A stretch of DNA of 64,000 nt from Chalciporus piperatus (taxonomy: Eukaryota > Basidiomycota > Agaricomycetes > Boletales > Boletaceae), in contig JBBPTG010000009.1 in the NCBI GenBank assembly GCA_038093975.1, forward strand, positions 124,001-188,000, in the 5' to 3' direction. The notes beneath the pieces were generated by a model. The model did no database searches. It worked only from the letters and a program-made list of their open reading frames with translations, and was not told the DNA's origin. Of this stretch, positions 917 through 57,058 are shown in pieces. The position numbers and the translations under genes are program-made. The stretch's first letter is position 1. Each line of letters begins with the position of its first letter.

Positions 917-1863
917 TTACACAAAGCTAAAGCATCGACATACCCAATGCCAGATGGACATGAGGAAGGTATCCCAACGAACACCATTATCTTCGTGTTG
1001 CCGTTGTCCATCCCGATTGGGGCCTCTGGCATTTGTGGAGCCTCCAATAACCTTTCCTGGATCATCTCTCCTCTCCCGGTAACGCACGACACCTGGGGTA
1101 GGAGAACAGTTCTTCACCACCAGCGCCCTCAGCTTCTCCTTCGATTCCTCGTATTCCTCCTCATATGCATGTCGACCAGACCTCATGGGTCCACGACACG
1201 CAGTAACGCATGCATGGTCTTGGAAGACCAACCCAAACCTCTCCAGGTCAGCTACATTGGCATCCCACCACGCCTCCATTGGCTCTTCGTTTTCCAACCC
1301 CGTGACTACGACGACGATAGGCACTTGTTCGTCGAAGATGGCACGGTAGAACAAATCGTAATTGATCCGTACGACTTCTCTGAATCGGGTTCCGCGGATG
1401 ACGTAAACGAGGAGGTTGAGGCCATCCTTCAGCTCCTGTGCTAACTTGGCGAGCTCATGCGCGGCTACGAGAGGATGGGTAGATCCCTGTTCGCTCTCGT
1501 TGAGACCGATGGTATCCCATAGGACGAAGCCTCGCCCGTCGATTGTCGTGGGATAGGGCACGCTCCTGGAGGTGCAACCAATGGCTCTGCTGGATACGCG
1601 CGCGGTGTTGGTGTCCTCTCCGACTAACATGTTGATGACCGAACTCTTTCCGACACCGGTCTCGCCGAAGACGAGGACGTGTTTGCAGGGAGGCTGCACG
1701 TCGTTTTCAGGGACGCCTGGTAGTGGTCCAACACTGAGGTCTGCTACATCCTCTCAGTCAACAATGACACAGGACCAAGCATATACTTACGCGGCGACAA
1801 TGTCATCGTGCAATGTACTTGGTCCTGTTGGCTCTGGAAAGACGACTCGTACGTTTCAGACAT
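917..1863 (-). CDS. P-loop GTPase of the G-domain family (copy 1)
   Basis: Two exons (1863-1791, 1743-917) joined by a 47-nt GT-AG intron give 299 aa. The first ATG, MSETYESS, lies in exon 1; without the intron the frame has no ATG ahead of the G domain and meets a stop. Seen: G1 GETGVGKSS at about residues 51-59, G3 WDTIGL at about 100, a G4-position motif VVTGLENE followed by AWW at about 171-183, and a G5-position HACVTACRG. The C-terminus ends in a hydrophobic, Cys/Trp-rich stretch (WHWVCRCFSFV) that might associate with membrane. Family knowledge: this arrangement resembles AIG1/GIMAP and Era-like G domains, which bind GTP. The G4 box is not the usual NKxD, so guanine specificity is uncertain. 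It is transcribed divergently from copy 2. The last 60 residues match no paralogue, so the 3' end is the weakest part of the model. Confidence 0.75.
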
Positions 1864-2172
1864 TGTCGGTTTAACTGAGGACGGATGACGGAGGTAGCAG
1901 GGAAGCAGCCGCACATAAATAAACTGCAAGAAGTAAGAAGCAATCTAGCAGATCCAAGTCCGAAGTGGACCAAAGCTTGGTACGAGGTTCCTCGCCACCA
2001 AGCACGGACTTCTATATTGCGATCTCAATTCACATAGAAATGAGAACGACGACACCCGGACTCACCACGCCCAGCTCTCCCTCAGCCTTCGAGTAATTCT
2101 GCGCAGCCCACCGTGGTAAGCATTTCGCCAGATGAGACTAGTTTGTCACTCACTTAAAAATGGCAGACAAAC
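1864..2172. promoter_or_regulatory. Shared divergent promoter region of GTPase copies 1 and 2
   Basis: The 309 bp between the two ATGs must hold both promoters because the genes run outward from it. I see no clear TATA box. This is inferred from gene orientation only. Confidence 0.4.
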
Positions 2173-2952
2173 ATGATGTCTCGATCCACACCCAACATCA
2201 TCATCTTTGGAGAGACCGGAGCCGGGAAAAGCTCCATCGTCAACATGCTAACAGGCGAAGACGTCGCGAGCACCGCCAACGCTGCGCAAGGCTGCACGTT
2301 CCAAACAAAGTGTTTCCCGGTGACAATCGCCGGCCAGGTGGTCAACATATTTGACACCGCTGGTCTCAACGAGGGAGACCCGACCACTCTGAACAAGATG
2401 AGCGCCATTCGGCAGCTCTACCAACTAGTGATCAGCCTCAAAGGAGGGGTCAACCTACTCTTATTCGTGATGCGTGCCCCACGGATTAAGGAGTCGAATG
2501 TTCAAAACTGGAGGCTCTTCTACGAACTCATATGTGCCTCCCGAGTTCCCATCGGGATTATCGTCACTGGGCTCGAGAACGAGGTTGTGATGGATGAGTG
2601 GTGGTGGAAGAACCGGGAGCACTTTGAGCGGTGCGGGATGAAGGCGGCAGGACATGCCTGTATTACGGCGACTCGGGGGAAGAAGAAAGGGGACCGATAC
2701 CTGTTCGAGGAAGAATACGCGGAGTCGAAGATAAAGGTCCAACAGCTTATCGTGCGGTGCGCCCTGTTCAAGGCTTGGAACGTTCCAAGAATCAGGTGGT
2801 TCGCGCGTACGGGAATGCTCTGTTGGGAACACAAGGTTATAGACCACGGAGTCCTGGAAACGATGGCACGCGTCATGTCAGAGGAGGACGCGAAGGCATT
2901 TGCAGAGGAACTGGCAAAGGTAGAACAGGACAGCGTTTTGAGGAGTTTTTGA
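2173..2952 (+). CDS. P-loop GTPase of the G-domain family (copy 2)
   Basis: A single open exon encodes 259 aa starting MMSRSTPN. G1 GETGAGKSS sits at residues 13-21, almost at the N-terminus, followed by G3 FDTAGLNE, the G4-position IVTGLENEVVMDEWWWKN and G5-position GHACITATRG. The C-terminal third is charged and helical. It is the closest local relative of copy 1: both have TGLENE and both have an EEYxESK helix after the G5 region. Another ATG in a different frame at 2160 was not used. Predicted cytosolic nucleotide-binding protein; the biological role is unknown. Confidence 0.8.
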   Translation: MMSRSTPNIIIFGETGAGKSSIVNMLTGEDVASTANAAQGCTFQTKCFPVTIAGQVVNIFDTAGLNEGDPTTLNKMSAIRQLYQLVISLKGGVNLLLFVMRAPRIKESNVQNWRLFYELICASRVPIGIIVTGLENEVVMDEWWWKNREHFERCGMKAAGHACITATRGKKKGDRYLFEEEYAESKIKVQQLIVRCALFKAWNVPRIRWFARTGMLCWEHKVIDHGVLETMARVMSEEDAKAFAEELAKVEQDSVLRSF

Positions 2953-4341: not shown

Positions 4342-7300
4342 ATGGCGCTCAACCCCGACGCACTTAACCTCAACTATGACAGCGATGACAGTATGCAGGT
4401 GGACTCTGATGATGACCACCAAGTAGACCAACCCACATCCATTCACCCCCCTCCTGACAATGACCCTGACGCAGACGCAGACGCAGATGCTGAGGCCGAC
4501 CCGGATGCAGACGCAGAGGGTGACGCAGAGTATGGCGACGATACCGCATCTGCAGCCTTAGAGAACCCAGTTGCAGGTCCATCAACCTACTCACACAAAG
4601 ATTCTGTAAGTTATTCACAGTTCTGTCCATTCCGTCCTGACCCATGATCATCCGCACAAGGATGCAGAGGACTCGGTAAGTCGTCAGTTCAGGTCACAAC
4701 CCTTATCGGTGTTGATACCGCCTTGTAATCAAGGGTTATGAAGACCATGTCGAAGAGGAAGACGACGATGACGACGACGACGCTTCTTATGCTGATGACG
4801 AGTATGGCAAAAAGAAGGCCACAAAAAAGAAGACAAAGAAGGCGCCTCCTCCATCGTCTGCACCCCGACCGAAAGGTTCGTCGATGAACTGGCTTATATG
4901 CGTGTCCTGTTGATGATCATCCCGGGTAGCCATACGTCATGCTTCATCGGATTCAGGCTCGGATTACGGTGCACGATCGAAGAAAAAGAAGAAGCCTCGT
5001 GTTTCCGGGGACGAGATACGTGTGTCCAGCCGAGGAAACAAAATTCCGAATTATTACGAAGATAACCAAGACCTCGCGATGCTCTCGGAAGAGGAAGCGG
5101 CGGAAGGATATTATGTCGACCCCGCACTTGTCAAAGAGGAAGACGAAATCGAGGCCGTCCTGAGTCACTGTAGAGATGAAGGTCGCGAGGATGATCCGGA
5201 GGACTTGTGGTACGATAATGTGGTATGTTGTCATTTCGCCTAGTGTAGCCACGATGTTATCGTGCTGAGAATCTTGACAGCGTTTCCATATCAAGTGGAA
5301 GAACTTCTCCCATCTCCACAATACGGACGAAACCTACGAATTCCTTAAACGGTTCAAGGGTTTGAAACGCGTCGACAACTATATCAAGGCTTATAAGGCT
5401 TATCAAGCGAAGCTCAATGCGCCCGGTCTCTCTACGGAAGACGCCGAGACTCTTCTTCTAGACAAGGAGCGCGAAAAGGAGGAGCTAGAGACCTACAAGA
5501 CCGTCGAGCGCATCGTCTCACATCGTGACAGCGCAGAAATTATCAACGGCACAGACTATTTCTGCAAGTGGACTGGCCTCAACTATGAACACTGCACGTG
5601 GGAAGACGAGGGTGAAACCCGTCCGATAGCCAAGGCTCAGATTGAGGCATATCGTGCCCGTGAGGCGGAAGCCAAATTCCCTTATAAGAGCGTTCAGTAT
5701 GCTCGACATCAACGACCAACATTCCAGAAGATTGTGAAAGATCCGGAATATATCTCGGCAACCGGAGGCGAACTCAAAGACTTCCAGTTGACTGGATTGA
5801 ATTGGCTGGCATACCTCTGGAGTAAGGGTGAGAACGGTATTTTGGCCGACGAGATGGGTCTTGGAAAGGTGCTGAACCACTTCAATTTCGTCTCATCTCA
5901 CTGATGATTTGCCTCAGACCGTTCAAACTGTATCTCTTCTCTCCTATCTCTTCCAAGAGATGCACCAATACGGGCCATTCTTGGTCATCGTTCCTCTTTC
6001 CACAATCACCGCGTGGCAATCACAGTTTGCTACTTGGGCACCTGACTTAAACGTTATCACCTACATCGGAACCGCAGCTGCCCGCGAGGTCATTCGTACA
6101 TACGAGTTTGGCTCATCGAATAAGCGACTCAAGATGAACGTTCTCCTCACCACATACGAGCTAACCCTTCGGGATGCAAAAGAGTTGGGGGACATCAAGT
6201 GGCAGGTGCTTGCTGTTGACGAGGTTTGTCTATGCCAGGGCCCTGGGTGCTTTGCGCTGATGTTCGCTCCGAAATAGGCGCATCGCTTAAAAAATTCCGA
6301 GAGCCAATTGTACGAGGCACTTCGGTCGTTTTCTGCTGCGTCGAAGCTCCTCATCACGGGTACACCTTTGCAGAATAATGTAAAAGGTGCGAGCTGCCCC
6401 CGGAGCTTCACCGAGTTTAGTCACTGACGTCCAACCACTCTCAGAGCTCTTGTCCCTGATGCATTTCCTCATGCCGGAGAAGTGTGCGTAACGTCTAAGA
6501 GTTACCCCCGGTGTTTGCTGAGCCGCGTTCACAGTTGCTCTCACGAACGAATTTGACCTCAACGATGCCGATCATGAGGCCAAGATTAAAGAACTCCACG
6601 CCCAATTGGAGTCGCTAATGTTGCGACGTTTGAAGCGGGACGTGCTCGCATCTCTTCCCACAAAGAGTGAGCGCATCCTGCGGGTGGAAATGAGTGCGCT
6701 TCAGACTCACTTCTACAAGAACATCCTTACAAAGGTTCGTCACATTCGCACCATCTGGCTTTGCGTCCATCTGACCTTGATGAGATAGAACTTCCAAGGC
6801 TTGGTCAAAAGTGCCAACGGAAACAACAACATAAGCTTGCTCAACATCGCCATGGAGCTCAAGAAAGCTGCGAATCATCCTTACCTTTTCGATGGGGCAG
6901 AGAACCGCACTGACAATGCCGAGGAGACTCTCAAGGGTCTCGTCATGAACAGCGGCAAAATGGTGCTCCTCGACAAGTTGCTTGCGCGACTGCGACAGGA
7001 TGGTCACCGTGTCCTCATTTTCAGTCAGATGGTTCGCATGCTTGACATTCTGAGCGATTACATGAACTTCCGTGGGTATCAACATCAACGCCTGGATGGT
7101 ATGGTCTCCTCGGACGCACGGAAGCGCTCGATCGCGCATTTCAATGCCCCAGGGTCGCCGGACTTTGCATTCTTGCTCTCCACACGAGCTGGTGGTCTCG
7201 GTATTAACTTGGAGACTGCCAACACAGTCATCATCTTTGATGTAAGTAGCCTAGGCCTGATGTCTTCCTTCCTTGGCTAACCATCCGTAGAGTGATTGGA

Positions 7301-9557
7301 ATCCGCAGAACGACTTGCAAGCCATGGCGCGTGCCCATCGGATAGGTCAAAAGTCGCATGTTAGCGTCTACCGTTTCGTGAGCAAGGACACGATGGAGGA
7401 GGATGTCTTGGAGCGAGCTAAGAAAAAGATGGTTTTGGAGTACGCCAGTAAGTCTTCAATTCATTTACGTCCTCATGATGAATAATGGTTCCGTTAGTCA
7501 TAAATCAGATGGACACTTCTCAGGCTCATCTCAGCTCCAAAGGCGACAAAATCAAGGATTCCGTTAAACCGGACAACCTGAGCAAAGACGAGCTTACCGC
7601 TGTCCTCAAATATGGCGCTCAGAAGATGTACGTTGTGAATTCGTTATGTCTCGATGACTCTCACACAATTTCACAGGTTCGACAAGGATGATTCGCAACA
7701 GAATCAGAAGCTAGACGAAATGGACCTTGACGACATCCTCAACAGGGCAGAAGACCACGAAACCACGGCTGCTGGCGGCGACGGTGGAGCCTCCCTCGGT
7801 GGCGAAGGCTTCCTTGCTCAGTTCGCTGCCGTGAGCGATGTCAAGAACGACATGAGCTGGGAAGATATCATTCCTCTGGAGGAGCGACAGAAGGTCGAAC
7901 AAGAAGAGGATGACCGGAAGGCGGAAGAGTTGGCTGCTCAAGAGTCACGGGACCGGAAACGGTCCCATGCTCCTGTCTCATATGAGGGCATGGACGTTGA
8001 CCATCCCACCGCTACACCAGCTCCAAAGAAGCCCAAAGCCCCAGGACCTCAGCGGAAGACAGCGAGTCAGAAAGCGATGGAACTCAAGGAACGAGACGTC
8101 CGCGTGCTCATCCGCAGCCTTCAGCGTTGGGGTGATATTCGTCAGCGTTATGACATCATCGTGCGTTCCTCCCTTCGAGTCACTCAGCATACCTTCTGAT
8201 CTCTTGGCAGGTTAGCGAAGCCAAGCTCACTGATAAACACAAAGCCATGATCATCGATGTCGCAGATGAGATCATTGAACTCTGTACCCAAGCTATCGAG
8301 GAGAACAATCAGGAGAAGCGGAGTCGTCTAGCTGCAGGGGAGGCGCTGACCAATGCTCAGAAGAGCAAAGCAGTCCTGGTCACCTACCGCAATGTTGGAA
8401 ACATCAACGCCGAAACCGTCCTTTCCCGGTACCGTGACCTCCGTATCATGAACAACATTCTGAGTGATATGTCCCCCGACGAGCTCTACAATTGGTCCAT
8501 TCCTATCGAGAATATTAGACCAACTCTTAACTGGTCTGGTCGCTGGGGTCCTCAAGAAGACTCCATGTTACTCGTTGGTGCCTTCCTCTATGGCTTTGGT
8601 AACTGGGAAGCGATGGCGAAAGATTCACGACTCGGCCTTCAAGGCAAGTTTTTCTTAGAAGAGGGCAAGAAGGGCGAAGATTCATCCACGCGACCAATTC
8701 CCAATGCCATTCACCTCGTCAGGCGGGGCGACTTCCTCTTGAGCATACTACGTGAACACGACGAGAAGTTGCGTTCGTACGAGAGTTCATTGCGAACCAA
8801 AGGACAGCTAAAGGTTTCGGCCACCCCTCCTCCTACAGTAGTGGCGTCGTCATCCACGAGCAGTCGGAAGAGACGTGCCGAGAGTGAAGCTGTCGCATCC
8901 GTCGAAGATACCTCCACCAAGAAACGGAAACGGCGACCGACACCCACTTTCACGGACTCTGAGTCGTCGGATGAATGGTATGTCCCTATTGCGGACGTAT
9001 GACTTCTATCATCCTGAACATTTATGAGCAGCCCCTCGATGGACGAAGGGTCGACAAAGGAGGAATTGCGGCCGGTGAAGAAACAACTGGTGGGTGTTCG
9101 TAAAGGATCGTGGTCGCATGGATTGACCTTCGCCCAGAAACAACTCAAGCTATCCGGGGAGGACATGCCCCGAGACGACAAGGTTGCCATCTTGAAGGAA
9201 TCCCTAGCTGCTATCGGCCGGCGAATCGAGGTCGTACTTCAAACTAAGCAAGCTGCTGGGGAAGACCGAGAAAGATGGCGAAGGCATCTTTGGACGTAGG
9301 TGATTCGACCGTGTGCGCTGCCAAGTAGCTCAGCTCCGTTATTTAGGTTCGTCACGTTGTTCTGGCCCAAGAAGGTCAAGGCTTCTAAGCTAGAGGAGAT
9401 CCATGCGAAGATGGTGATGAAGGAAGCCGCTCCTCGGCCGTCATCAGATGCACCGAGCTCTAGTAAGAAGCCCCGACCCACGACAGGTGGAAAAACCAAT
9501 GGGCCATTGTCCGCTTCCAGCACATCCATGAAGACAAACGGCAAGCCATATCGATGA
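4342..9557 (+). CDS. CHD1: CHD1-type ATP-dependent chromatin remodeller
   Basis: I placed 16 exons (4342-4605, 4661-4675, 4734-4875, 4930-5222, 5281-5868, 5918-6223, 6278-6386, 6445-6483, 6535-6734, 6789-7241, 7291-7447, 7498-7627, 7677-8160, 8211-8977, 9029-9295, 9347-9557). All joins keep frame, for 1474 aa. Domain order is that of CHD1: an acidic N-terminus with an Asp/Ala repeat, a lysine-rich segment, two chromodomains (about 5150-5620), then the SNF2 ATPase. The ATPase shows ADEMGLGK|T split by an intron, DE|AH also split, TGTPLQNN, and in the second lobe [11 protein letters not shown] and [18 protein letters not shown]-like region (W-x-P-Q-E-D) and a CHD1 C-terminal domain (LRPVKKQL to RWRRHLWTF) follow. 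Known role: nucleosome spacing in transcribed chromatin. The micro-exon of 15 nt (4661-4675) is notable. Confidence 0.95.
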
Positions 9558-11190: not shown

Positions 11191-13136
11191 TCAATACTCT
11201 GTATCCACATAGTTGGCCATTGGATCTTCTGTATTTCGACGATTCATCCGATAAGCCTCTGCACAGTTATAGGTTGATTAGAGCTGAACAATTATGTGTT
11301 AGGATGTGAACTCACCAAGTTCCTCCTCCGTGACGTCGTGACTGCCAACCCCCAATCCTTTCTTCTTCTTGCTCAACCGATCGTCATCATTGCCTCCCCA
11401 CGCTTTCCGCTTCTTTTCGTCGTTCAGAGCTTCGGCCAGCCGTTCTTTGTCAAGAGTAATGTCGCCTTCTCCTAAACGTTGTTTCGAGTAGTTCTGCTCT
11501 ATACGTCCTCTTGACTCAGCTACTTCTTGAGCCGATGGATCGGATGACGACTTTGATGATGACGCAAGAAGGACTTGGGCCGTCGACGCATGCAAAGCTT
11601 CTCTCCCGACCTCACCAGCGCAATATGACACGTGAACGACCGAATGACAGCATGCGTACCCCCAGCCACCCGTCGAGGCATCGTACCACGAGCCCCACAC
11701 GGCGGTGTGATTGTTGATATACACTGGGACGGAATCAATGTTAAGCTTACGATCTACAAAGCAATCTGGCAACTCACCATCTTCGGGGTACTTTGAGCGT
11801 GCTTTGGCGCGCTCCTTCCCTTTGACAACCTGACCCGCCCGAGAGTACTCGACGTAATTCTCTGTTTGACCATCGACGAGTTCTTTGGGCGCCTTCTCCA
11901 GGTACCGCTCTCCGCCGTATTTCTCGAGGATGGAGACCTTATTCACGTCCTTAAGTTCCTCTTTCTTCTCCTTGTACTCTTGGTGCAGGAGCTGTCCTTG
12001 AGTGGGGCCTGCATGCAAGTGGATGTCGTTACCCCGTTGGGAAGCTTGCCAGGCAAATAGTTGGAGTGTCTGAACTTCTGGCGCTTCACCACTGTGTCGG
12101 AAAAAGTTCTCTCCGGCGAATTTGGCCTGAATGCAATGAATTAGCAAGTGTCAACAAGGAGCAGTGGAGCCTACTCACATCTTCCGGAGAAAGACTCTGT
12201 AGTGGGGCATCGCGCATAGAACGGGTTTTGGGATCGTAGTAAGCACTCTCTGGATCCAAATTGATGAGGTACTTGGCGGTATCTTCTCGAATACGAAGAT
12301 TTCGGACGGTGATACGAGTCTTGGTGTCGAGTTTCTGTCCAACCGCATCAGCTGCGTCTGCGTACTTGTCGTCGTCTGCGTCATCCTCGTCACTGGAGCC
12401 AAAGTCAGGGTCTGCAACCTTCTCCTCCCTTCCCGCTTTGGCGACTTTTCGAGCTGCAGCGAGATCAGTCGTCGTTTGGTTGTCAATCTCCTCCTCCCGC
12501 AACTTTTTTCGAGCAGCTTCGATGGCTTCGTATTCTTCGTATATTTTTGTATGCTCTGCAGGGTCGTACCCATTCCATCGATCCCGCTTCGCATCGTAGC
12601 CAGCCGCGACGTCCTGAATGATTTCGTCCGCTTGAATATCCTTGTTGGTGTATTTGGCACCCTTTTTCCGGGGACGTTCAAGACAGTCTTCCTTCTTGTG
12701 CGTCATTGCCCCACAATTCTCGCATGCGCCTTTGCGGTACTTCTTAGCGGCAGGACTAGCACGCACACCCCGGTCATACCAGTTGTCGAGTTTTTCAGAG
12801 GTGCGATCATCTGTCTGTCGACGTTGATGACTCAGTGACGGAGCACCGGTGTCGAGATACCATGGTGCTTGTGAGATATATTCTGGAATAGTAATATACA
12901 AGTGAGCATGGATATGGGTAGGGAGGACTGATTAATAGACGTACGTGGAATATGAGGGTTGATAGGTCTCCCCTGCTCATCGAGCGCGGCAGGTGCAGTT
13001 CCGGCTTTACGAGCGGCGTCGAGGTCTTTCTGGCGACGGAATTCCTCGCGCGAAAGCTTTCCGATAGCTAAAGTATGGCTATGTAAGAACTTGATGGCCT
13101 GAATGTCAGAAAGCTGAACCCACCTGAGGACGCCAT
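11191..13136 (-). CDS. SLU7: Pre-mRNA splicing factor SLU7
   Basis: Six exons (13136-13124, 13067-12945, 12882-12179, 12126-11778, 11723-11316, 11258-11191) encode 554 aa, and every join keeps frame. Start is [15 protein letters not shown]. Diagnostic parts are the [11 protein letters not shown] motif spanning the intron 2 junction, the CCHC zinc knuckle [14 protein letters not shown], the [11 protein letters not shown] segment, [29 protein letters not shown] with the following CCHS, and the C-terminal [17 protein letters not shown]. The last exon lies beyond a 57-nt intron, and reading through it would wrongly end the protein at GEFTS. Known role: second-step splicing factor for 3' splice-site selection in the nucleus. 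The promoter is shared with the divergent EZH2-like gene and holds a TCACGTGA box 67 bp upstream of the ATG. Confidence 0.95.
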
Positions 13137-13202
13137 GATGGTTGTGCTGCTTGAACTTGTGTAGGACCGAGTACTGCTTTGTCATTTTAGCAAGTACCGC
13201 CC

Positions 13203-13210: not shown

Positions 13211-13290
13211 CCTGACGCGGACGCGAAGTGCAGTGTAGTCTTGGGAGTGTAGAATCACTGTAGATCACAGTGCAACTTCTCATCAGCCTG

Positions 13291-23450: not shown

Positions 23451-24121
23451 GGTTGTCGTCTAGACAGAGAGCAGGAGTGGCAATGGAAGATAACATGTTC
23501 CATGCGATAAATAATCCCGGCAAGAGGGCACTCGTGACAAGGCGTGGAATGAGAAGGCATGGGGGACAGTGACAAGGCGTGGGGGACAGTGACCGACGGG
23601 ACACGCTTCCCCGGGCGATGGCAACGTGACACTGGGAATGCGAGCAGTTCTCTCAGCCAATGGACCAAGATCGCTGCCTGTGATTCGTCGGGTTCACTAG
23701 TCCTAGTAGCTTCGAATTGTGAGATAGGATTAAAATAACTTAGTAAGATGGTCTGGTGCTGAAAGCCATATCAAAATAGGACCGAGGAGATTCGCAGCGT
23801 ACTCTTATCGCTGAAGGACCCTCATTGAAGTTGTTCCGGAATGACGATGTCAATAAGTCAAGGTGTGTTTGGCTACCACCGAGTTGTTTGGGCACCAGGA
23901 GGAGTAAGACCCCATAAACTCTGTTTCGTAGTCCAAATTAGGCGATCCACGTCGCATATTTGGGGTCTCTTTGATTCCTCCATTGTTCGATCGTAAATCG
24001 GAACAATGGGCGTGTTATTCCGACAAACTTTGGCTAATAAACCACGTTTTTTTCTCATCTTTTGCTCGCCTTTTCTTTGCAGGGATTCGCCATCGTCGTT
24101 CTACAGCATTCGCTACGCACC
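23451..24121. other. Divergent promoter region with short direct repeats
   Basis: This separates the monooxygenase start (minus) from the coiled-coil gene start (plus). A 60-bp patch at 23534-23593 contains GTGACAAGGCGTGG twice (23534, 23569) and TGGGGGACAGTGAC twice (23560, 23580), interleaved. The sequence just before 24122 (ctttgcag at about 24076-24083) looks like a 5' UTR intron acceptor. Confidence 0.5.
23534..23593. repeat. Interleaved 14-bp direct repeats
   Basis: Two 14-nt units are each present twice: GTGACAAGGCGTGG at 23534 and 23569, and TGGGGGACAGTGAC at 23560 and 23580. It may be a small tandem duplication or repeated factor sites upstream of the monooxygenase. Confidence 0.6.
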
Positions 24122-35446: not shown

Positions 35447-36963
35447 ATGGCAGAGTGAGTACAACTCCGGGACTGTGACGTTTGATTCATCTTATTCACA
35501 GGCGGGTGTTCAAAGTCGTATTGTTCGGCGTCACTGGTTGCGGGAAGAGCTCTATTATCAATCTACTCGCTGAAGAATCAGTGGCAGATGTATCAACAGG
35601 TGTGGAGGCTTGTACGAAGCGAGCCCGATGGTACTCTGTCTCGCTTGGGGGAAAGAAATTCCGATTATGGGATACGATGGGTTTCAATCAGGCCGAAACC
35701 AGAGACATCAACCCTCTTTCACCTTACGAACAAGCGCACACTCTCCTACGCAGCTTACAGGACGGCGTCGACCTCATTCTCCTTTGTTCCCGGAAAGACG
35801 GGATCAATGCTTCTCTTCGCAGTCTTTATTGGCTGCTCAACTTCTTCTTCTTCGACGGTCGGGCACAAATAGCCCTTGTCTTGACCCACTGTGACACGCC
35901 TGATCCAGGGTGGTGGGAGCGCAATAAGCACAATATCCGCCAGAGATCTGCCATCCCAGTCGATAGCCTTCCTCACGCATGCATTTCCGCAGTTCAGCCA
36001 CGAACCAGTGGTCTGGATGATCAATCCAAACAAGCCCTGGGGGCTCTCTTGGAAACCTATGCCACCATCCCTGTTCCCCTCCGTCTCGCGCTCACATCAG
36101 AAAGTGCGTCAGCCTTGATGACCCACTGCCAACTAAGCAGCCCCGATGCTACAGCATTGGTAGAAAAGTTCAACAAACCCAAACGTCCATATCATGTCAT
36201 CTTCTTCGGGGAAGCGGGTGTTGGGAAGAGCTCGGTCGTCAATCTCCTCGCCGGTACAAAAGTAGCGGAAGTCTCTCGCGGGATTAACAGCTGCACGCTG
36301 GATTCTCGTCGTTACAAGATTCACACGGGAGTCCACCAGTTCGTGATTTGGGACACTATGGGTCTTAACGGAACAAATCTTGGTCACAATGTTGCCGCGC
36401 AAGCCTTGGAGAACGTCGCTCGTTTGATTCGGGACTTGCACAACGAAGGTGGCGTTGACTTGCTTGTTTTCTGCAAGCAAGCCGGCCGCCTCTCCCCGAC
36501 GGAGTTGAACAGTTATAGACTTTTCCAAGACTTTCTCTGCGAAGGGCAAGTCCCGGTCGCTCTCATCATCACTCATCTCGAATCTTGCACGCCGATGGAG
36601 AGTTGGTGGGAAGATAATGGAGACGGCCTTCTCAAGGCCAACAAGATGAACGCGATAGGTCATGCATGCATCGCATCGCTTCCAGCGGACGATCCGATGA
36701 ACCAACAGCTCTTCGGTGACAAGCTCTTGCAATCTAGGCTATCGGTCCAAGCTTTGCTTGAGGACTCCGTTTCTCATGGCAGTTCGTTCAACAAAGAACC
36801 AGGGATTTGGGTAATGTCGTTCTTGAGAAAGATGGTGGGGATGATCAAGGCTGGAAATGTCTCGAAGCGGGATAAGATTACTGCCAAGAATCTCATGGAA
36901 CGTTGTGAGTTAGCCAAGGACCAGGCTGAAGAACTTATCAAGTTGCTCTATGCACGAGGTTAG
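35447..36963 (+). CDS. Tandem double-G-domain GTPase (copy 3)
   Basis: An 8-nt first exon (35447-35454, ATGGCAGA) is spliced over a 47-nt intron to 35502-36963, giving 489 aa that begin MAERVFKVVLFG. Two complete G domains sit in one chain. Domain one has G1 GVTGCGKSS at about residue 12, G3 WDTMGFNQ, G4-position LTHCDTPDPGWWERN and HACIS. Domain two has G1 GEAGVGKSS at about 239, G3 WDTMGLNG, ITHLESCTPMESWWEDN and HACIA. A helical C-terminus (MERCELAKDQAEELIKLLY) closes it. Tandem G domains can pair within one molecule, as in EngA or GIMAP8 (known analogies, not shown homology). It is a tandem paralogue of the gene at 41212. Confidence 0.8.
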
Positions 36964-41211: not shown

Positions 41212-42753
41212 ATGGAAAGCATTAATGGTGGCCGCAAGTAAGTCACTACAACATCAAATCGGTTTTGTTTGTCTTACCTCAATCGCAGGCGGGAGTACAA
41301 AGTCGCGCTGTTCGGCGTCACTGGTTGCGGGAAGAGCTCAATCATCAACCTTCTCACCGAGAAACCAGTAGCGGAAGTGTCCACGGGAGTGGAGGCTTGC
41401 ACTCTGCGAGCCCGATGGTACCCATTCACTATCGGGGAGAAGCAGTATCAGATATGGGACACGATGGGTTTTAACCAAGCCGAGACCAAGGACATCAATC
41501 CGCTTTCCCCTTACGAACAGGCGCACGCTCTCCTGCGAAACTTGCAAAACGGCGTCGATCTCATTCTCCTCTGCTCCCGGAAAGATGCAATCAACGCGTC
41601 TCTTCGAAACCTATACTCCCTGCTCAGCGACTTTTTCTTTGCCGGTCAAGTGAAAATCGCCCTGGTCTTAACCCACTTTGACACTCCTGACGAGCAGTGG
41701 TGGGAACGGAATTGCAACACCATCTGCCAGCGATACACCATACCCACCCATTCTCTCCCTCATGCATGCATCACCACTGTGCAGAGCGGAGACAACGTGA
41801 TGTACGCTCAGTCTAAACAAGCCCTTCAGTCACTTGTAGAAACGTACGCCACCAATCCGACACCCCTACGCCCAGGTCTTTCATCGCAGACCCCAGAAGA
41901 TTTCTCCGACAAATGCCAACTTAGCCTCACACTCGCCACCACACTAATAGAGCGATTCCGCTCACCCAAACGCCCATTCCACGCGATCCTCTTCGGAGAG
42001 ACAGGTGCTGGCAAGAGCTCAGTCATTAACCTCATCGCTGGGCATCCGGTCGCAGAAGTATCTCCAGACATAAACAGCTGCACGCTATCCTTTTCCAGTT
42101 ACGAAATCAACACGGGATCGCATCAGTTCGTTATCTGGGACACGATGGGTCTCAACGGAACCCAGCTTGGACACAATGTGGCCGTGCAAGCGCTGGAGAA
42201 TGCCGCACAGCTGATCCGCGAGCTTCACAGGCAGGGCGGGGTCGACTTGCTCGTATTTTGCAAGAAGGCTGGCCGGATCACCGAGACCGAACTACATTGC
42301 TATCGTCTCTACCAAGAGTTCCTTTGTGAACAGCAAGTCCCTGTCGCTCTCATCATCACCCACCTCGAGGGTCAAAAAGCATCGATGGACGAGTGGTGGG
42401 AACGAAATGGGAGCAGCCTCGTCAAAGATTACAACCTGAACGTGATCGGCCATGCTTGTATAACATCGCTTGCACAGGACGATCCCGGTAATCAGAGTGT
42501 CTACGGCGATAAACTCTCCCAGTCAAGGCTATTGGTTCAGACTTTGCTCGAGGATTCGATTTCGATCTATGGAAACACCTTTGCCAGGGACGAAGGAACT
42601 TGGGTCATGGCGTTCTTGAAAAAGGTGGTGGGGATGGTCAAAGCTGCAAATGTATCCAGGAGGGATAGAATAAATTGGAAGAACGTGAAGGAACGCTGTG
42701 GGTTGTCCAGGGAGCAGGCTGAAGAGCTCGTGAAGACGCTGTATCGACAGTGA
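41212..42753 (+). CDS. Tandem double-G-domain GTPase (copy 4)
   Basis: Exon 1 41212-41237 (MESINGGRK) and a 51-nt intron lead to exon 2 at 41289, for 496 aa; an in-frame ATG at 41158 could add 18 residues. The layout matches the gene at 35447. Domain one has GVTGCGKSS, WDTMGFNQ, LTHFDTPDEQWWERN and HACIT. Domain two has GETGAGKSS, WDTMGLNG, ITHLEGQKASMDEWWERN and HACIT. The two proteins share long identical runs (such as LSPYEQAH and VDLILLCSRKD), and the intron interrupts the same codon just before the first G domain. It converges on copy 5, only 143 bp away. Confidence 0.8.
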
Positions 42754-42896: not shown

Positions 42897-43538
42897 TCAT
42901 GGGTTAGAGCGAAGATTTCCGCAATGCTGTATGACTAAATCTCGAACGAGCTTCTGTGACTCTTCATACTTCGAGTCCAGAAGTCTCCAGGAGGGATGAC
43001 CTGGGTCCCATGTATTTACGCATACGTGACCAGTAAAACCAAATTGGATGGTGCTCGTCAACTCCTCGCCATTCGTAGCCCACCACTCCTCGACGGACCC
43101 ACGACGATGACCAAAGCCGGTAACGACGAGAACCAGGGGAACACCTCCCACGCAGAACGTCTTCCAGATGTTCCTCAGATGTGTTGCCTGGTCCTTTGCC
43201 AACCTCCCGCGGCGCATACAGTACACCACGAGGCTGACGCCCCCTGCGTCTTTCAAGTGCGCCTTGATGGCGTTCCAAGGGGACGGATGGTGTTCCAACC
43301 CGAGGGTATCGTAAAACCTGATCGTTATACCAGAAGAAAGCGAGTCAGACTTCTCGAGGGAGTCTCCTGAAATTTCGCAGAGGGGGATTGGATATTCGAC
43401 GACCGCTGCATGCGCAACGCTGATGTCGTCGCTCACAGAGGCGACTGGTTTTCCGATAAGCATATTGACAAGGGAGCTTTTCCCGACTCCGAGTGACCCG
43501 AGAATGAGTACATTCCGGAACTCTCTGCCACCTTCGAC
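42897..43538 (-). CDS. P-loop GTPase of the G-domain family (copy 5), 5' end unresolved
   Basis: The readable exon begins near an acceptor at about 43530 and encodes REFRNVLILGSLGVGKSS, then MLIGKPVASVSDD, G3 YDTLGLEH, G4-position VVTGFGHRRGSVEEWWATN and GHVCVNTW, ending CGNLRSNP. It is the most divergent copy: G4 lacks the acidic residue, HAC is HVC, and about 18 residues are inserted before the DTLG motif. No in-frame ATG precedes the P-loop, so a first exon is needed. A candidate ATG at 43673 gives no clean splice in frame. It could be a gene with an unplaced exon or a decaying copy. Confidence 0.6.
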   Translation of the reverse strand, partial: VEGGREFRNVLILGSLGVGKSSLVNMLIGKPVASVSDDISVAHAAVVEYPIPLCEISGDSLEKSDSLSSGITIRFYDTLGLEHHPSPWNAIKAHLKDAGGVSLVVYCMRRGRLAKDQATHLRNIWKTFCVGGVPLVLVVTGFGHRRGSVEEWWATNGEELTSTIQFGFTGHVCVNTWDPGHPSWRLLDSKYEESQKLVRDLVIQHCGNLRSNP

Positions 43539-44334
43539 GTAAGTTATTCAGCAGTGTAATAAAGACGTCTTATTACTCGCCCTATCTGAGCGGATGGAGG
43601 TAAGGACTGCTTAGACCCTGGTCGAATACAGAAAAGGATCTGAAATAGCCCGAGTAAGTTGAGCATGAATGCTGGAGAATGATTAGTGTAAATGAGTCTA
43701 GGCTCAAACCAAGAAGTTAGGTATAAGTCGGTCCAGGAGGGGGAACCCCGGAACACTGACCCTCAAAAACAAGGATGAGGCGCTTCTCGACACATATAGA
43801 AAGCTCCACGGAACCGGGTGCTGGAGTCCCGGTCTGGTCAGGAAGGTATGAGATCCTCATTTAAGTAGATTCTGATGCAGGGATGACCCTAGAGCAACAC
43901 ATGTTTGCCAACTCGTGTCTAGGGTACCCATGAATTTACGCTCGAATCTTGTAGGTTGACGGAGCTTAAAGCCTGGAGCAAGCCTTGAGGCTCAGGGTGG
44001 CGCTGCTGTGCCGCAGTGAGAAGACCTCCGTGGAGAAGTGCGGTAAGCACATCCACACAACACCCGTTCGCGTAGTGAATCAGGAAACTCGACTACCAGA
44101 AACGAGCCGTGGGGGTCGATCAGTGAACAATACTTCTTCGTATGGTACACCCGGGCAAAGTCACGACAAACGATAGATGGCATCTTAGATCTTAGATAAG
44201 AGCGAAGCCCATGTGTCACGTGACGTTTCACCTACCCAAAAGCAGGTAGGGGAGTCTGAAAATTCGAGTATAAGAACCGAATCAAACTTTATTGCCCTCT
44301 GAACATCGCTCTTTCTGATCGCCCACTTTCAATC
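43539..44334. other. Divergent intergenic region between GTPase copy 5 and the RRM gene
   Basis: It may contain the missing first exon of the minus-strand GTPase. The right end holds the RRM gene promoter elements listed separately. Nothing else is recognised. Confidence 0.45.
44216..44276 (+). promoter_or_regulatory. RRM gene promoter: TCACGTGA box and TATA-like element
   Basis: TCACGTGA at 44216-44223 and TATAAGAA at 44269-44276 lie 119 and 66 bp before the ATG at 44335. Order and spacing fit a fungal core promoter. Confidence 0.5.
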
Positions 44335-50848: not shown

Positions 50849-53207
50849 CGCGAAGGTGGACGACGTGTAGATGTATTTGAGTGTCGAACTGTGTGTCGTG
50901 GTTACTGTCGTGGTCGTGAAAAGAGTCGTGGTCGTCGCCGTCGCCGTCGTCGGGGAGGAGAAGAGGGAGAGGAAGGGATGGCCTGGTAGAGAGGCGTGCG
51001 AATCTGAGACGGCAGCATCCTTGCCTTTTGAGCTTGATGTGTGGCTGTGCAACCTTTTCCTTGTATCACATCCTCAAATCAAGTCAATCATGAACCGCAG
51101 TCTGGTCTCTATTAGTACATTAGTACATACAGGATAGCACACAAGGACTAGACTAGGGTCTGCTAGGGTCTCGCCATCAGCTACCTCTTTGTCCTGTTCA
51201 CCAGCAAACGTATTCACCGACCGTTTGACAAGGTGAACAATGCGCCCTGGGCCTGAGCAGCCGAGATAACAACATCCGCTTACTGATGTGCTCCTGCATG
51301 CTCCGTCTTCGCTCCTCAATCACGCTCATCACATGCATATCCACAGCACTCATACAAGCCTCATGTTTTCCATCACTGTTCTGTCCTCCGAATCACGTCG
51401 GATCAGCCATCCACATGAGTCTACATGTCACCGAAAGGGGAAAATCAACACGTGTAAAACGCATGTTTTCCTCTTTCTCTCTTCTCTTTTCTTGCTCTCT
51501 CTCGGCCCACCCAGTATCGGCAAGCGTCGGCATTATGCCCTCAGCGGCTAGTCATACCCGCAACGTCCCCTCACACGCTACGCTTCCCGTGCGTATCCAG
51601 TTATCCAGATTCCTCGAATCAGTCTGCACTGACTCTGCAGTTTGATGATCTCCTCCATGCATAAGGATCACCGCAAGTTAGGCATTCGACGGTCAGTGCT
51701 GTGTAGAATCACGCCACGAAACGCTCAGGATCCTCTCCATATTGTCGACGTTCTTATCTCAGTTACGCCCGATAACACTGGATACTTTTCATTCGCCGAA
51801 TGCCACCTCTAACTTTTGAGGCTAGCATGATCACCAGCTTGAATGAACTTACTTATCGATGACAACTCCCGCCACCACTTTCCCATGCCTCTACTACCCG
51901 AACCGAACATCGAGCGAGCAATTCTTGGTATTCCTATTACACATCGAGCTAGTAATGCTCCGTCAAGTGGTGGTACATTCACTAGGTGCGCTATGCTTGG
52001 TTTGACAGCGGTTTGACATTCGCATGCACGCGACGTCGCGACGACATAGGACGACATCTGACGACATTCGCTGCCGATTTGCGGATCAGGGCACAATCGC
52101 GATTCGCCCTTCCAATTGTGCATTTACTTCCGGAAATTGCATCACACTATTCTGACATCTCATATATCTGCAACAAGCCCCTGTCTGTCGGGTCTCGTCA
52201 TTATCCCGTAATTGGCTTGCTCTTCATCACTTCCTTCGGGTCGAGGAGCGGCCGGTGAGCACAACATCGCATAGACATTGAGCTTATCTTCCCTTACCAT
52301 TTCTTCTTTCCCCCTTCTTGATGCATGCTCAGATCGCCCATCGTCACACCCTGGATAAATCTATCATCTAGAACCCTTCAGACTGGAGGCAGCCCATGAG
52401 AACAAGGCCCTGTGGGGAATCCACGAACGTGGGTGGGGACGGTTTCAAAGTAAGCCAGGAGTATCTATCGATTGAGCGCCACACGGAACGCAGCCAGCGG
52501 GCGGTTCCCAATTAAGCTTTGCAGTACATGCAATATAGAGGTATAAATTCAACTAGATCTGTCAATCGTTATTGAGCTAACGCATTTTGCCGCGTCAGAA
52601 GCATGGTTTTTGCAGATAGGTTGCACGCTTTGACGAACCAGAGCTAGACATTACACTCATACCAGCTCAAAACCGCTCCGCTAATGATCCCAAGGAAGCA
52701 AGCTTTCGTTGCGTGCAGTTGATTACCTCCACTTGTTGAGATCGGAGGATGGTCGTTCTGATGCCGCCATCGAGAAGTCTCACGAAGTTTATCTTCTGTG
52801 GTGAGAATCAGGTGACATGAGAGAGTCTCGCTTACTCAAATATTGTATCCTTGAATTATGTGTTTCGAAGCATCATTCATGTACTACTTTCAAGTTTCAA
52901 CCTCCATCACACGTTCGTGTTCCATACTATACATAACCTCTGTTGCGCTATGGAGATGACTCGATGCTGTGGTACCAACACGTTGTAGCCGGACTGGTCC
53001 AGGTGAAGTCCACGCTCCTGATGAACCCCAGGCCCAGCATGTTCCTCGGGGCTGAGCGCTGGACACCGCTTTCCATGCGACTTGGTCCACTTCATGAAGC
53101 CGACTGGTTAACCCAACGCCAGCCAGAAACCTTTTCATCGGCAGTCTTTTAACTCTTTGTACAATTCTCCCGAATTACGAGCTACAGTCTCCGTGGTCGC
53201 ACAAGAC
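50849..53207. other. 2.4-kb stretch without a recognised gene
   Basis: The left end is the promoter of the ABC-like gene. The remainder has only short frames on both strands without domains. The last 60 bp lead into GTPase copy 6. Confidence 0.45.
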
Positions 53208-54035
53208 ATGTCCATCGGTGAGTACAGGTTTCAGATTACGGTGATCAGTGAATCAGACATGGCGTGGCGTACCACAGAACCTTTCAACATAATTCTCTTT
53301 GGGGAAACGGGCGTCGGGAAAAGCTCAGTCATCAACCTCTTGGCAGGAAAATCCGTCGCAAATGTTTCCTCTGACGTCGAGGGCTGCACGCTACAATCCA
53401 CGAAATACGCCTTCCCTGTCGGAGGTGTTGAGGTCAGAGTATGGGACACGGTCGGCCTCGAGGAACCCACGATGGGGGTCAATGGGTATCTGACTGCCAT
53501 AGAAAAAGCCCATGCGCTTATACGCGACCTGGGCGAGGCAGGCGGCGTGGATCTACTCCTTTTCTGCATACGAGGCAGCAGGATCACGTCGACTACACAA
53601 AGCAATTATCGGCTTTTTCACGAAGTCCTTTGTAACAAGGAGGTTCCGATAGCTTTGGTCATCACCAACCTGGAGAGGGAGACAGAGATGGAGGATTGGT
53701 GGAACAGGAACAAGGAACATATCAAGATGTACGGTATCCACAGCATCGGACACGCATGCGTCACTGGTGTAGAGGAAGATGAAAAGTACGGCAAGTCGAG
53801 AGAGGCGTTGCATACGCTCCTCCGGTCCCTATACACCGATAAGCGGAAGTTTTCAATGACGCCGGAATCGTGGCTTGCAAGAGTATTGGCAGGTTTGGGA
53901 ACCTTTCTCCATAGCAAGAATCCTCCCAAGGGGGAGAAGATGGTTCGTACTCTGGTTAAGCGTTGTAACATGGACGGAGAGACCGCGAGACGGCTGGCTG
54001 CCATGCTCACAAATAATCAACCTCAAGTTTCATAG
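53208..54035 (+). CDS. P-loop GTPase of the G-domain family (copy 6)
   Basis: 275 aa from ATG 53208. A 39-nt in-frame segment (53218-53256) starts gtgagt and ends cag, so it could be a retained-or-removed mini intron; a second ATG lies at 53259. Seen: FNIILFGETGVGKSS, WDTVGLEEPTMGVNG, a Cys-containing strand LLLFCIRGSR, G4-position VITNLERETEMEDWWNRN and GHACVTGVEEDEKYG. The helical C-terminus ends LVKRCNMDGETARRLAAML. It is very close to copy 7, which it faces tail to tail 509 bp away. GTP binding is likely; the function is unknown. Confidence 0.8.
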   Translation: MSIGEYRFQITVISESDMAWRTTEPFNIILFGETGVGKSSVINLLAGKSVANVSSDVEGCTLQSTKYAFPVGGVEVRVWDTVGLEEPTMGVNGYLTAIEKAHALIRDLGEAGGVDLLLFCIRGSRITSTTQSNYRLFHEVLCNKEVPIALVITNLERETEMEDWWNRNKEHIKMYGIHSIGHACVTGVEEDEKYGKSREALHTLLRSLYTDKRKFSMTPESWLARVLAGLGTFLHSKNPPKGEKMVRTLVKRCNMDGETARRLAAMLTNNQPQVS

Positions 54036-54544
54036 GTTACATGTACGTTCATCGATTCATCTCGTACGATGGTGGTGTAGAGCGAGTAATATATCTACTC
54101 TCCTCTACTTATACATATATTCCTTTGCTCGAAGCATTCGCGGACTATTGATTAGCCCCTGAGTCGGAGTTGACGTCCCTGACCAGATCTTGCCTTCAAC
54201 GAGCTTTAGCATGAAAGGGGTGGAGGACACAATAGTTTCTCTATCTTATACCCCATTGGAGAATGGAAGGCTAAGGTTTTCCAAAACAAGGAGGACACCG
54301 CAATTGACCTCCATTCGAACCCTGTGCCGAACCGACTCGGGAGGTATGCTCGATACGCTGAGCCTATAGCTGCACGTCGTGAACTTTGGTCCACAGGCGT
54401 TTGATGCAGAGAGACCCCCGAACAACTAATATTGAAAGAAACAGATGATGTTCATGGTGCAATACAGACTACAGATCGTGCGGAGAGAGAGTACACTGGA
54501 TTGATGAATGCGATTATTATAAGTATCCCAACGAAACACCGAGC
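54036..54544. other. Intergenic between convergent GTPase copies 6 and 7
   Basis: 3' flanks of both genes. Nothing coding is recognised. Confidence 0.5.
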
Positions 54545-55291
54545 CTAATCCGCACTTCCCATCGAGCTCGCGAGCTCTTCGGCAACCTTGGGGTCCAATT
54601 TACAGCGCTTCGTCAAGACCTTGACTAGTTCCTTCTGCTTCGCCTTCTCCTTCAGCGGAGCAAAGAATCCAAACGCGCGCAAGAACTCCTTGAACCAGCC
54701 ATCCGAGGGCATGGTAAATCTTCCTTGCCCGTTGTGTTCCTTCAACAGCTTGTCGATGTTTTCTCTCGACTCGCCGTATTTGCGGTGAGACCTGAGACCT
54801 GTGACGCAAGCATGGGCTGCAGCCTTGATCCCATACTTCTCCAGACTTTCCGAATTCCTGCCCCACCACTGGTCCATAACCTCTTCCCGCTCAAGGTGCG
54901 TGATGACGAGAGCGATCGGAACTTGAGATCTGCAAAGTACTTCGTAGAACAACCGATAGTTGCTCTGAGTAGTCGCGGTGACGCGGTTTCCACGGATGCA
55001 GAAAAGCAGTAGGTCGACACCACCCTGGGCTTCCAAGTCATGGATGAGCTTCCAAGCCTGCTCGATGGCGGGAAGGAAGCCGTTGACTCCCATTTCCGGC
55101 TCCTCAAGGCCGACTGTGTCCCAGATACGGAACCTCCGACTGTTAACATTGAAGCCGTAATCTTTGAAGGACATGGTACATCCTTGGACGTCGGGAGAGG
55201 TTTTTGCGACTTCCTGCCCAGCAATCAGATTGATCACTGAGCTCTTGCCGACGCCCGTCTCTCCGAAAAGGATGATGTTGAATGAGCTCAT
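54545..55291 (-). CDS. P-loop GTPase of the G-domain family (copy 7)
   Basis: A single exon encodes 248 aa from MSSFNIILFGETGVGKSS. G1 lies at residues 9-17, followed by G3 WDTVGLEEPEMGVNG, G4-position VITHLEREEVMDQWWGRN and HACVTGLRSHRKYGESRE. The C-terminus LVKVLTKRCKLDPKVAEELASSM parallels the tails of copies 3, 4 and 6. It shares long identical runs with copy 6 (TTQSNYRLF, GGVDLLLFCIRG), which marks them as a recent inverted duplicate. It is the shortest complete copy and shows the minimal domain. Confidence 0.85.
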   Translation of the reverse strand: MSSFNIILFGETGVGKSSVINLIAGQEVAKTSPDVQGCTMSFKDYGFNVNSRRFRIWDTVGLEEPEMGVNGFLPAIEQAWKLIHDLEAQGGVDLLLFCIRGNRVTATTQSNYRLFYEVLCRSQVPIALVITHLEREEVMDQWWGRNSESLEKYGIKAAAHACVTGLRSHRKYGESRENIDKLLKEHNGQGRFTMPSDGWFKEFLRAFGFFAPLKEKAKQKELVKVLTKRCKLDPKVAEELASSMGSAD

Positions 55292-56158
55292 GAAGAATCT
55301 GCGGACATGATGTTAGATCGGGACCCTTCTAGGAGCAGTTGACGTTCGCACCACCAAAGTACAAGGAAGAAAAGGCCGTAAAGGTGAAGGATGAGAGACA
55401 GTGAGATGCACGAAGAGGTGGCGGTAAAAAAAGTGCTGCGGGAAGTGTGGCGGAGGATCGACGATGGGCTTGAGTTGAAAGAGTTCTGGTGCACTGACTC
55501 GAAAGTGATATTTGTGTTAGGGATCAGGGTAAACGCACGCACAAAGCTGCTGGTTGCCTCGACTGGTCCAGATGGTCCTCGGTGATTAACCGCGTGGTTG
55601 AATGAGGGTGGACACGAGGCTTAATTGGTTCCATGGAAGGAAAGATCAGGCAGAAGGGGTGGAGCGTGACGGGGTTAGCGCTCGAAGCACCCTGATCAAG
55701 TATTCGTCCTCGCAAAGTTGGCCTAGCACTATAGACAACGAACTGGGTGAGTCGGTGAGGTTGGCTAGTACATACGTAACTGGAGCACGCAAGCTGGATC
55801 GACGTGTGATTTGGATTGTGCATTTTGAACACCAATTATGATTCAGGATCTTACAAAAAGTGAACAGTTCAAAAGGTTCGTTGCAGTCCAATTAGTATTT
55901 CGAGTTTATTCCGAAGAATCACCTTTGACCTTGCTGCAGGCCGACTCGAATGCTTGCAGAGGTTAAGAGAAAATCCAAGGTCATGTCAAAATTGCCCACC
56001 ATGTCAAATGTACCTAGGTCGGCTAATACAAGCCCTTTGATCAAGGAAGTATCTGAGAGTGTTTTTACGAAGAAAGAAGGGGTATGAGTAGCTCTTCAAT
56101 ACGATACATCAAATCAATACATAAAATACCCCGCAAAACGAATCATATGCATCCGTAC
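55292..56158. other. Intergenic, no gene recognised
   Basis: Upstream of copy 7 and downstream of copy 8, both on the minus strand. It has short frames only. Confidence 0.45.
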
Positions 56159-57058
56159 TCAGCGGTCCAAGCATCTCACCACTTCGCGGGCTATCTGCTC
56201 ATCAAATCCGCATTCATTCGTCAAGACCTTTCCCCTTGCCGAAGATCGAGAACGTAACAATGAAGTAACTGAACCAACAGTTTTGCCCACAGAATGGCGT
56301 AGCGAGCCGAATCCGTGTTTCGGTCGATCAGTGCACGAGACAAAGAACGACAGGAAGGATTCTCTCGACCGCACGTCCGTGTCCGCGTTATGACTTTTCC
56401 TGCATGTAACGCCGATACACCATGCGCAGTCGATGCCATATTTCTTGATCGTGACACCGTGCTCATTCCACCAGCTGTCTGCGGTCTGTTCTTTCCTAAG
56501 TTTGGTGATAACCAGAGCGGAGGGAACTCTACCCCCGCAGATGACCCTGGAAAATAAGCAATAGTTTCGTTTGAGAGCAGCGGTTGGTTTTGTATTATCG
56601 ACGCAGAAAAGGAGTAGGTCGGGACCCTTGCCGTTATTGAGGTGGCGTATCAGCTGCTGGATTTTGTCGATTGGATCAATGAAAGCCCGGGTACCCATCT
56701 GGGGATCGATGAGACCAGGGGTGTCGTACAAGTTGAAAGTTTTGCCTTTCTCCTGGACGGTGTACCGAGTAGTGGCTTCAGTACACGCCATAGTGTCTGA
56801 TGAGACACTGGCAACATTCTCCTTGAGGATCAAGTTGATCAGTGAGCTCTTGCCCACGCCAATCTCTCCTAACAGTACGATATCGAGAGCTTTGGCAGGT
56901 GGATGGGAGGACTATGAACGCCTTCAACCTGACTGATTATATTTTTGAAGAGGAAAACCACTGACCTTCTCATGATCTTGAGTCATGGAAGGTGCTTTGG
57001 ATCCTGAACGGGAGTATGATGGCGTATTGAGACAGCCGGAACTGCCGTTGTCCGCCAT
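56159..57058 (-). CDS. P-loop GTPase of the G-domain family (copy 8)
   Basis: Two exons (57058-56966, 56911-56159; 54-nt intron, phase 0) give 281 aa starting MADNGSSGCLNTPSYSR. The N-terminal 35 residues are Ser-rich and disordered. G1 is GEIGVGKSS at about 45-53, G3 YDTPGLID, the loop LLLFCVDNTK, and the G4-position VITKLRKEQTADSWWNEH. The HAC motif is replaced by AWCIGVTC. With TKLR instead of T-x-LE it is, with copy 5, the most diverged member. The C-terminus holds basic Ser/Arg runs (LLRSRSSARGK). Confidence 0.75.

What the first reader, a model, noticed from the sequence alone, without database searches (positions are those of the whole stretch)
917..57058. Eight-gene, ten-domain family of P-loop GTPases scattered through 56 kb
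Copies at 917, 2173, 35447 (two domains), 41212 (two domains), 42897, 53208, 54545 and 56159 share G1, G3 and a common helical tail. They occur as head-to-head, tandem and tail-to-tail neighbours between conserved housekeeping genes. Clustered, rapidly duplicating G-domain genes elsewhere (animal GIMAP, plant IAN/AIG1) are linked to immunity or stress. A comparable role in a fungus, such as non-self response, is speculation but testable.
Basis: partly seen in the sequence, partly recalled or inferred. Interest (0 to 1): 0.8.

Follow-up and report, generated by a model that had tools for sequence, protein, structure and literature searches.

The report
GIMAP-like GTPase cluster in a bolete
A bolete mushroom carries a large clustered family of switch proteins whose predicted shape is closest to animal immune GTPases (GIMAPs), and relatives of these proteins that seem unable to bind GTP are fused to a fungal cell-death domain, which points to, but does not prove, a role in fungal immunity.

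The parts
917..1753 (-). GIMAP-like G-domain protein, one domain; open frame without ATG before G1 (upstream exon needed); Trp/Cys-rich hydrophobic C-terminus
2158..2952 (+). GIMAP-like G-domain protein, one domain, ATG at 2173; AIG1 40.0 bits
35479..36963 (+). two-domain GIMAP-like protein; domain 1 lacks the arginine at the position aligned with the GIMAP7 finger, domain 2 keeps it
41242..42753 (+). two-domain GIMAP-like protein, duplicate of 35479 (D1 pairs with D1, D2 with D2, each 100/100)
42897..43547 (-). divergent GIMAP-like G-domain, no recognisable helical tail in this frame
53112..54035 (+). GIMAP-like G-domain protein, ATG at 53208 or 53259; orthologues in Lanmaoa, Butyriboletus, Boletus
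54545..55312 (-). GIMAP-like G-domain protein, ATG at 55289-55291; modelled (pLDDT 87.3); orthologues in several Boletaceae
56159..56911 (-). GIMAP-like G-domain protein, upstream exon needed; K instead of R at the finger position; no HAC motif by the pattern used
35527..35550 (+). G1 (GVTGCGKS) of domain 1 of the 35479 protein, as example of the P-loop
55241..55264 (-). G1 (GETGVGKS) of the 54545 protein
54854..54868 (-). WW..N signature of the 54545 protein
5278..9002 (+). flanking housekeeping gene: exons of a CHD1-type remodeller (not part of the family)
11299..12931 (-). flanking housekeeping gene: SLU7 splicing factor (not part of the family)

Best explanation
The eight genes encode GIMAP/AIG1-type (septin-like) G proteins: small GTPases expected to bind GTP, pair through their G-domains, complete each other's active site with a conserved arginine, and so assemble or release a scaffold. 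In boletes the family is old and large and has split into active GTPases (this cluster), two- and three-domain tandems, and pseudoGTPases. One pseudoGTPase branch forms the C-terminus of HET proteins. The likely working scheme: active GTPases pair with, or compete for, the nucleotide-free HET-linked domain, and their nucleotide state decides whether HET domains are brought together to trigger cell death, as part of allorecognition or defence. Shown here: the family, the fold resemblance (predicted), the arginine position in a sequence alignment, the fusions, the loss of nucleotide-binding residues and its conservation. Inferred: GTP binding, dimerisation, pairing between active and pseudo members, and the immune role.
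Against: Two family residues also changed in the fusions: R99 is V or I in 14 of 14 and N145 is H in 13 of 14, so the kept surface is partial. No HET match on contig C9; HET matches near family copies no more than chance (4 of 21 places within 30 kb, expected 2.56, P 0.26); only 2 of 72 HET matches in this genome are fused. No diversifying selection seen gene-wide. The five named species among the 13 relatives are all Boletaceae (families of four looked up, Boletus coccyginus recalled). The model of the fusion is poor overall (pLDDT 54.8) and weak (block means 38-55) over its P-loop part. Most HET genes are not known allorecognition genes (PMC10890737, passage). No expression, population or interaction data.
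Confidence: 0.42

Rival explanations
1. GIMAP-like GTPases with an ordinary membrane, vesicle or stress role; the HET fusion is a single ancient domain capture that says nothing about the rest of the family.
For: Fused rows are one clade, so one capture suffices; no co-location with HET genes beyond chance; purifying selection without gene-wide signs of an arms race; some members end in CaaX-like motifs (CIIQ, CIIS, CWMQ) or a hydrophobic tail, as membrane-bound GTPases of any role do.
Against: The fused domain lost the nucleotide determinants in parallel but kept ten other tested family residues across 14 proteins, which suggests it still meets something; clustered, tandem and pseudo-domain forms parallel vertebrate immune families.
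Confidence: 0.38
2. The family serves symbiosis or fruiting development rather than defence.
For: Many relatives come from Boletales such as Suillus, Pisolithus, Scleroderma and Imleria, which I recall as mostly ectomycorrhizal.
Against: No expression data either way; the HET fusion points to cell death.
Confidence: 0.15
3. The copies belong to house-keeping ribosome or tRNA GTPases (Der, Era, MnmE), as database names suggest.
For: Pfam's top name is '50S ribosome-binding GTPase'; some sources call relatives MnmE/TrmE; Der is the best PDB sequence match.
Confidence: 0.03

Closest known systems
Animal GIMAP / plant IAN-AIG1 GTPases (Pfam AIG1, PF04548)
   Same: Best fold match; G1-G3, a T..[ED] G4, a conserved arginine that aligns with GRYT of GIMAP7; clustered genes; three-domain proteins, as GIMAP8 has (PMC4201521, passages); hydrophobic or lipid-anchor-like C-termini in some.
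   Different: 13-17% identity to GIMAP1/2/5/7 in the structural rows; AIG1 profile matched only up to position 127 of 212 or less; own WW..N and HACxT signatures; HET-fused pseudoGTPase branch.
Vertebrate IRG (p47) immunity-related GTPases
   Same: Works-alike features: clustered genes, tandem two-domain transcripts, a subgroup with methionine for the P-loop lysine (GMS), GTPase joined to a 'quasi-GTPase' (PMC1297648, passages).
Fungal HET-domain allorecognition proteins (e.g. Podospora BH of het-B: HET, beta-rich HAD, lectin-fold C-terminus)
   Same: N-terminal HET, middle region, C-terminal module; in het-B that module determines recognition specificity (PMC10890737, abstract and passages).
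   Different: Here the C-terminal module is a pseudoGTPase; no family GTPase was found beside it, whereas Bh and Bp are neighbours. Whether the middle region is a HAD was not tested.
Septins and septin pseudoGTPases
   Same: Same broad septin-like class (recalled); pseudoGTPase members kept for assembly interfaces (PMC10731463, passages).
AIG1-Hint proteins of Rhizophagus (Glomeromycotina)
   Same: Another expanded fungal AIG1 group (PMC8778642, passage); an Aig1 gene is up-regulated when two isolates share a root (PMC7490403, passages).
   Different: Fused to Hint, not HET; sequences not compared here.

Membership tests
GIMAP/AIG1 (PF04548) | AIG1 profile above its curated cut-off | tested here: inconclusive
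   7 of 8 window proteins at or above 27 bits (53112 at exactly 27.0, 917 at 27.1; the two long ones by two domains together), 42897 at 13.5; best stretches stop at profile position 127 of 212 or earlier
GIMAP/AIG1 (PF04548) | GIMAP fold (G core plus following helices) | tested here: met
GIMAP/AIG1 (PF04548) | arginine finger of GIMAP7 (position recalled as R103) | tested here: met
   sequence alignment of the C115 copy places the conserved Arg on GRYT of GIMAP7; 31 of 42 own, 110 of 114 relatives; catalysis itself not tested
GIMAP/AIG1 (PF04548) | nucleotide-dependent G-domain dimerisation | not testable with these tools
   no dimer prediction or biochemistry available
GIMAP/AIG1 (PF04548) | role in immunity | not testable with these tools
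   needs expression and knock-outs
HET-domain proteins (PF06985), for the fused relatives | HET profile above cut-off | tested here: met
   C18 41.6 and C187 37.5 bits, cut-off 22.5, first 88-89 of 146 positions; GWTLQEL kept in 14 of 14
PseudoGTPase, for the fused relatives | loss of G1 lysine, G3 aspartate and G4 acidic residue | tested here: met
   14 of 14; nucleotide binding not measured
IRG (PF05049) | IIGP profile above cut-off | tested here: not met
   7 of 8 window proteins below 24 bits or unlisted; the two-domain 35479 protein has 24.9 over two domains together
Septin (PF00735) | Septin profile above cut-off | tested here: not met
   none of 8 reaches 26.2 bits
Der/Era/MnmE equivalogs | NCBIfam equivalog cut-off | tested here: not met
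   e.g. MnmE 45.3 bits of 380, Era 44.5 of 237, in the listings for 8 proteins

The most novel reading that the evidence does not exclude
Boletes run a GTPase-gated cell-death circuit not yet described in fungi: a large pool of stand-alone GIMAP-like GTPases acts as sensors or guards that pair with a nucleotide-free GIMAP-like domain on HET proteins, so that a change of nucleotide state or of partner frees the HET domains to kill the cell. Pseudo-members without HET (the C112 row, C65, second domains of tandems) would be further regulators, as GMS and quasi-GTPases are proposed to be in the IRG system.
Probability: 0.27. Interest if true: 0.88.

Novelty: new variant of a known kind. Interest (0 to 1): 0.6.

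Why it matters
GIMAP, IAN and IRG families are tied to immunity in animals and plants, but fungal allorecognition genes are described as coming mainly from the HET, gasdermin and NLR families (PMC10197012, passage). A GIMAP-like family that is large and clustered in mushrooms, with a conserved branch built into a HET protein but annotated only as HET, hypothetical or 'P-loop NTPase' protein, would add a class to fungal immunity and give a direct, cheap test (co-expression and cell death). It would also give a concrete answer, for one group, to the open question of what the unannotated regions beside HET domains do (raised in the same paper).

Tried and rejected
Ribosomal or tRNA GTPase identity: rejected by scores far below equivalog cut-offs and by fold rank. 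Recent, rapid duplication: not supported (7 own pairs chosen by me; dS 1.4-3.9 in six, saturated in one); the identical pair C12/C406 was not counted, as a likely double assembly. Physical linkage of HET matches and family genes: 1 of 21 places within 5 kb, 2 of 21 within 15 kb, 4 of 21 within 30 kb, none above chance (the 21 places were grouped by hand and leave out the fusions). A family GTPase beside the two HET fusions as partner gene: none among the 51 rows. CaaX-like ends: 4 of 37 own frames have Cys at -4 (0.87 expected) but only 4 of 251 database proteins do, so no general rule. A kinase fusion (P0228, Suillus subluteus): only the last part of a kinase profile at the start of the model, so it may be a mis-joined gene model. 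Prokaryotic origin: one scan of genome contigs with A3 found 1 weak relative (26%, Actinomycetes MAG) among 193 pattern matches. TIR-like fold of the HET part of the fusion: the VIA list was filled by the G-domain, so this was not tested. Range outside Boletales: the three protein searches list only the best 120 of 350 and of 238, and all 13; the only named non-bolete I saw is Athelia (P0191, Atheliales), so the true range is open.

Literature: in the listings no title or start of abstract describes a HET-GTPase fusion or this family in boletes; I did not open most of these papers, and the library lacks most subscription journals and all preprints, so this is weak. The word GTPase has 0 hits in the main text of PMC10197012 (whole word only), PMC9815663, PMC12881547 and PMC12411881.

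Slips: the frames of C12 and C406 were read wrongly and were corrected; one search printed nothing; one search stopped with an error after printing the Poisson value and was rerun. One search's G3 pattern was narrow (DT or DA only), so use for G3.

Full report
What is there. The window is C9:124001-188000 of a 35.5-Mb, 484-contig fungal assembly. The best named database relatives of the 54545 protein are boletes (Chiua, Imleria, Lanmaoa, Boletus, Tylopilus; named ones up to 77% identity, unnamed up to 78%), so the host is most likely a Boletaceae species; this is inferred from protein identity only.

The cluster is bigger than the window. A search of the genome with the 54545 protein gives 51 matched stretches (the tool scores only the best candidates, so this is a lower bound); 22 of the 51 rows are on C9, two of them pieces of one broken copy. 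After dropping five fragment rows and a duplicate contig copy (C406, identical to C12 over the matched stretch), 45 domains remain, of which 20 lie on C9 between 125 and 302 kb; chance would put 0.52 there (Poisson 5e-25; tandem copies are not independent, so this number only says 'clustered'). Smaller groups are on C23, C112, C115, C14 and C20, and three-domain proteins on C4 and C64.

PseudoGTPases. Of 45 unbroken domains, 37 keep the P-loop lysine and 8 do not: the two HET-fused ones, C65, the second domain of C20, and all four at C112 (S, I, V, V in its place). In addition, five two-part proteins and C20 carry a degenerate C-terminal stretch whose profile resembles the G core over 93 columns (HHalign probability 88.9, E 2.4e-6).

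HET fusions. Two long single frames, C18:239326-241611 (762 aa) and C187:30604-32982 (793 aa), start with a HET domain (41.6 and 37.5 bits, cut-off 22.5) and end with a family domain. A database search with the C187 end found 13 relatives; 12 carry HET in the same protein, the 13th is a 451-aa model that lacks the first part of HET and ends within the G-domain. Named sources are Imleria badia, Tylopilus felleus, Boletus coccyginus and Chiua virens for 4 of the 12, and Butyriboletus roseoflavus for the 13th. In the 14 aligned fusions the P-loop reads GxPG(V/A)(A/G)xx; the lysine, the following serine, the G3 aspartate and the G4 glutamate are gone in 14 of 14, the finger arginine in 11 of 14; R99 (V or I, 14 of 14) and N145 (H, 13 of 14) changed too; T104, N110, T130, L132, W141, W142, H159, A160, C161 and T163 are unchanged in 14 of 14 (25 positions looked at). 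The tree makes these 14 one clade (100/100) inside a starred set of 36 rows that holds 22 other copies of this genome (the root is not inferred). Between C18 and C187 the fused core evolves at dN/dS 0.25 (HET part 0.15, middle part 0.22, tail saturated). So the active site went but the domain did not decay. A model of P0121 is poor as a whole (54.8); block means are 59-84 from residue 501 to 720 but 38-55 over the P-loop part. Its last domain again has GIMAPs in the first eight ranks. Pfam at E 0.001 reports only HET for P0121 and P0129, which may be why the fusion is easily overlooked.

Evolution. Seven own pairs were tested: dS is 1.4-3.9 and dN/dS 0.10-0.19 in six, the seventh is saturated (Nei-Gojobori, whole frames; a few sites under positive selection could be hidden). 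The two-domain genes at 35479 and 41242 arose by copying a whole two-domain gene (D1 with D1 and D2 with D2, each 100/100). In a tree with 51 named proteins (from the 120 best hits of one query, so biased to that clade), the 54545 and 53112 copies sit in starred clades with other Boletaceae; within the 12-row clade of 54545 Imleria has 4 and Tylopilus 4 rows against 1 here, and Melanogaster and Paxillus have their own groups of 4 and 9 rows. The picture is an old family with lineage-specific gains, not a recent burst in this genome. Outside Boletales I saw one named relative, in Athelia (P0191).

Function. HET domains are cell-death inducers found in several allorecognition loci and thought to be related to TIR (PMC10197012, PMC12881547, PMC10890737; passages). 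In het-B the C-terminal lectin-fold module of a HET protein determines recognition specificity (abstract). In septins pseudoGTPases persist at assembly interfaces (PMC10731463, passages), and in the IRG system a lysine-less GMS class, tandem transcripts and quasi-GTPases go with clustered immune genes (PMC1297648, passages). By these analogies I propose that active family members pair with the HET-linked pseudo-domain and gate HET-driven death. Nothing here shows that pairing. Against it: no HET match on C9, no excess of HET matches near family copies, only 2 of 72 HET matches fused, and no data on expression or polymorphism.

Verdict.

Noticed in passing
L031 (C18:239326-241611) and L032 (C187:30604-32982): HET domain fused to a P-loop-dead member of this GTPase family; the same arrangement in 12 database proteins, 4 of them from named Boletaceae.
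   Followed up: yes
L035 (C112:49806-54669): Four neighbouring copies that have all lost the P-loop lysine (S, I, V, V in its place) while the glycines and serine of G1 are kept.
   Followed up: partly
L048 (C9:203379-204281), L049 (C9:212033-212686), L047 (C9:297861-298850): C-termini SGCIIQ, SGCIIS and SGCWMQ look like CaaX prenylation motifs; 4 of 37 own frames have Cys at -4 (0.87 expected), but only 4 of 251 database proteins.
   Followed up: partly
L049 (C9:209381-210139) and window 917-1753: Hydrophobic or Trp/Cys-rich C-terminal ends that could anchor the protein in a membrane.
   Followed up: no
L046 (C9:283435-283942), L045 (C50:142709-143110): Broken family copies (two frames, or an in-frame stop); the C50 piece lies about 2.6 kb from a HET match.
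   Followed up: no
C12:328228-328944 and C406:8-724: Identical translated copies on two contigs, so the assembly may hold some regions twice.
   Followed up: no
window 24041-25501 (+), 27438-29246 (+), 37205-39313 (-), 57642-59483 (-): Long open frames of 486-702 aa without any Pfam match at 1e-5.
   Followed up: no
whole genome: 72 HET-domain matches in the assembly.
   Followed up: no
P0191 (Athelia sp. TMB, 957 aa): A relative with three MMR_HSR1 stretches outside Boletales, so the family reaches at least Atheliales.
   Followed up: partly
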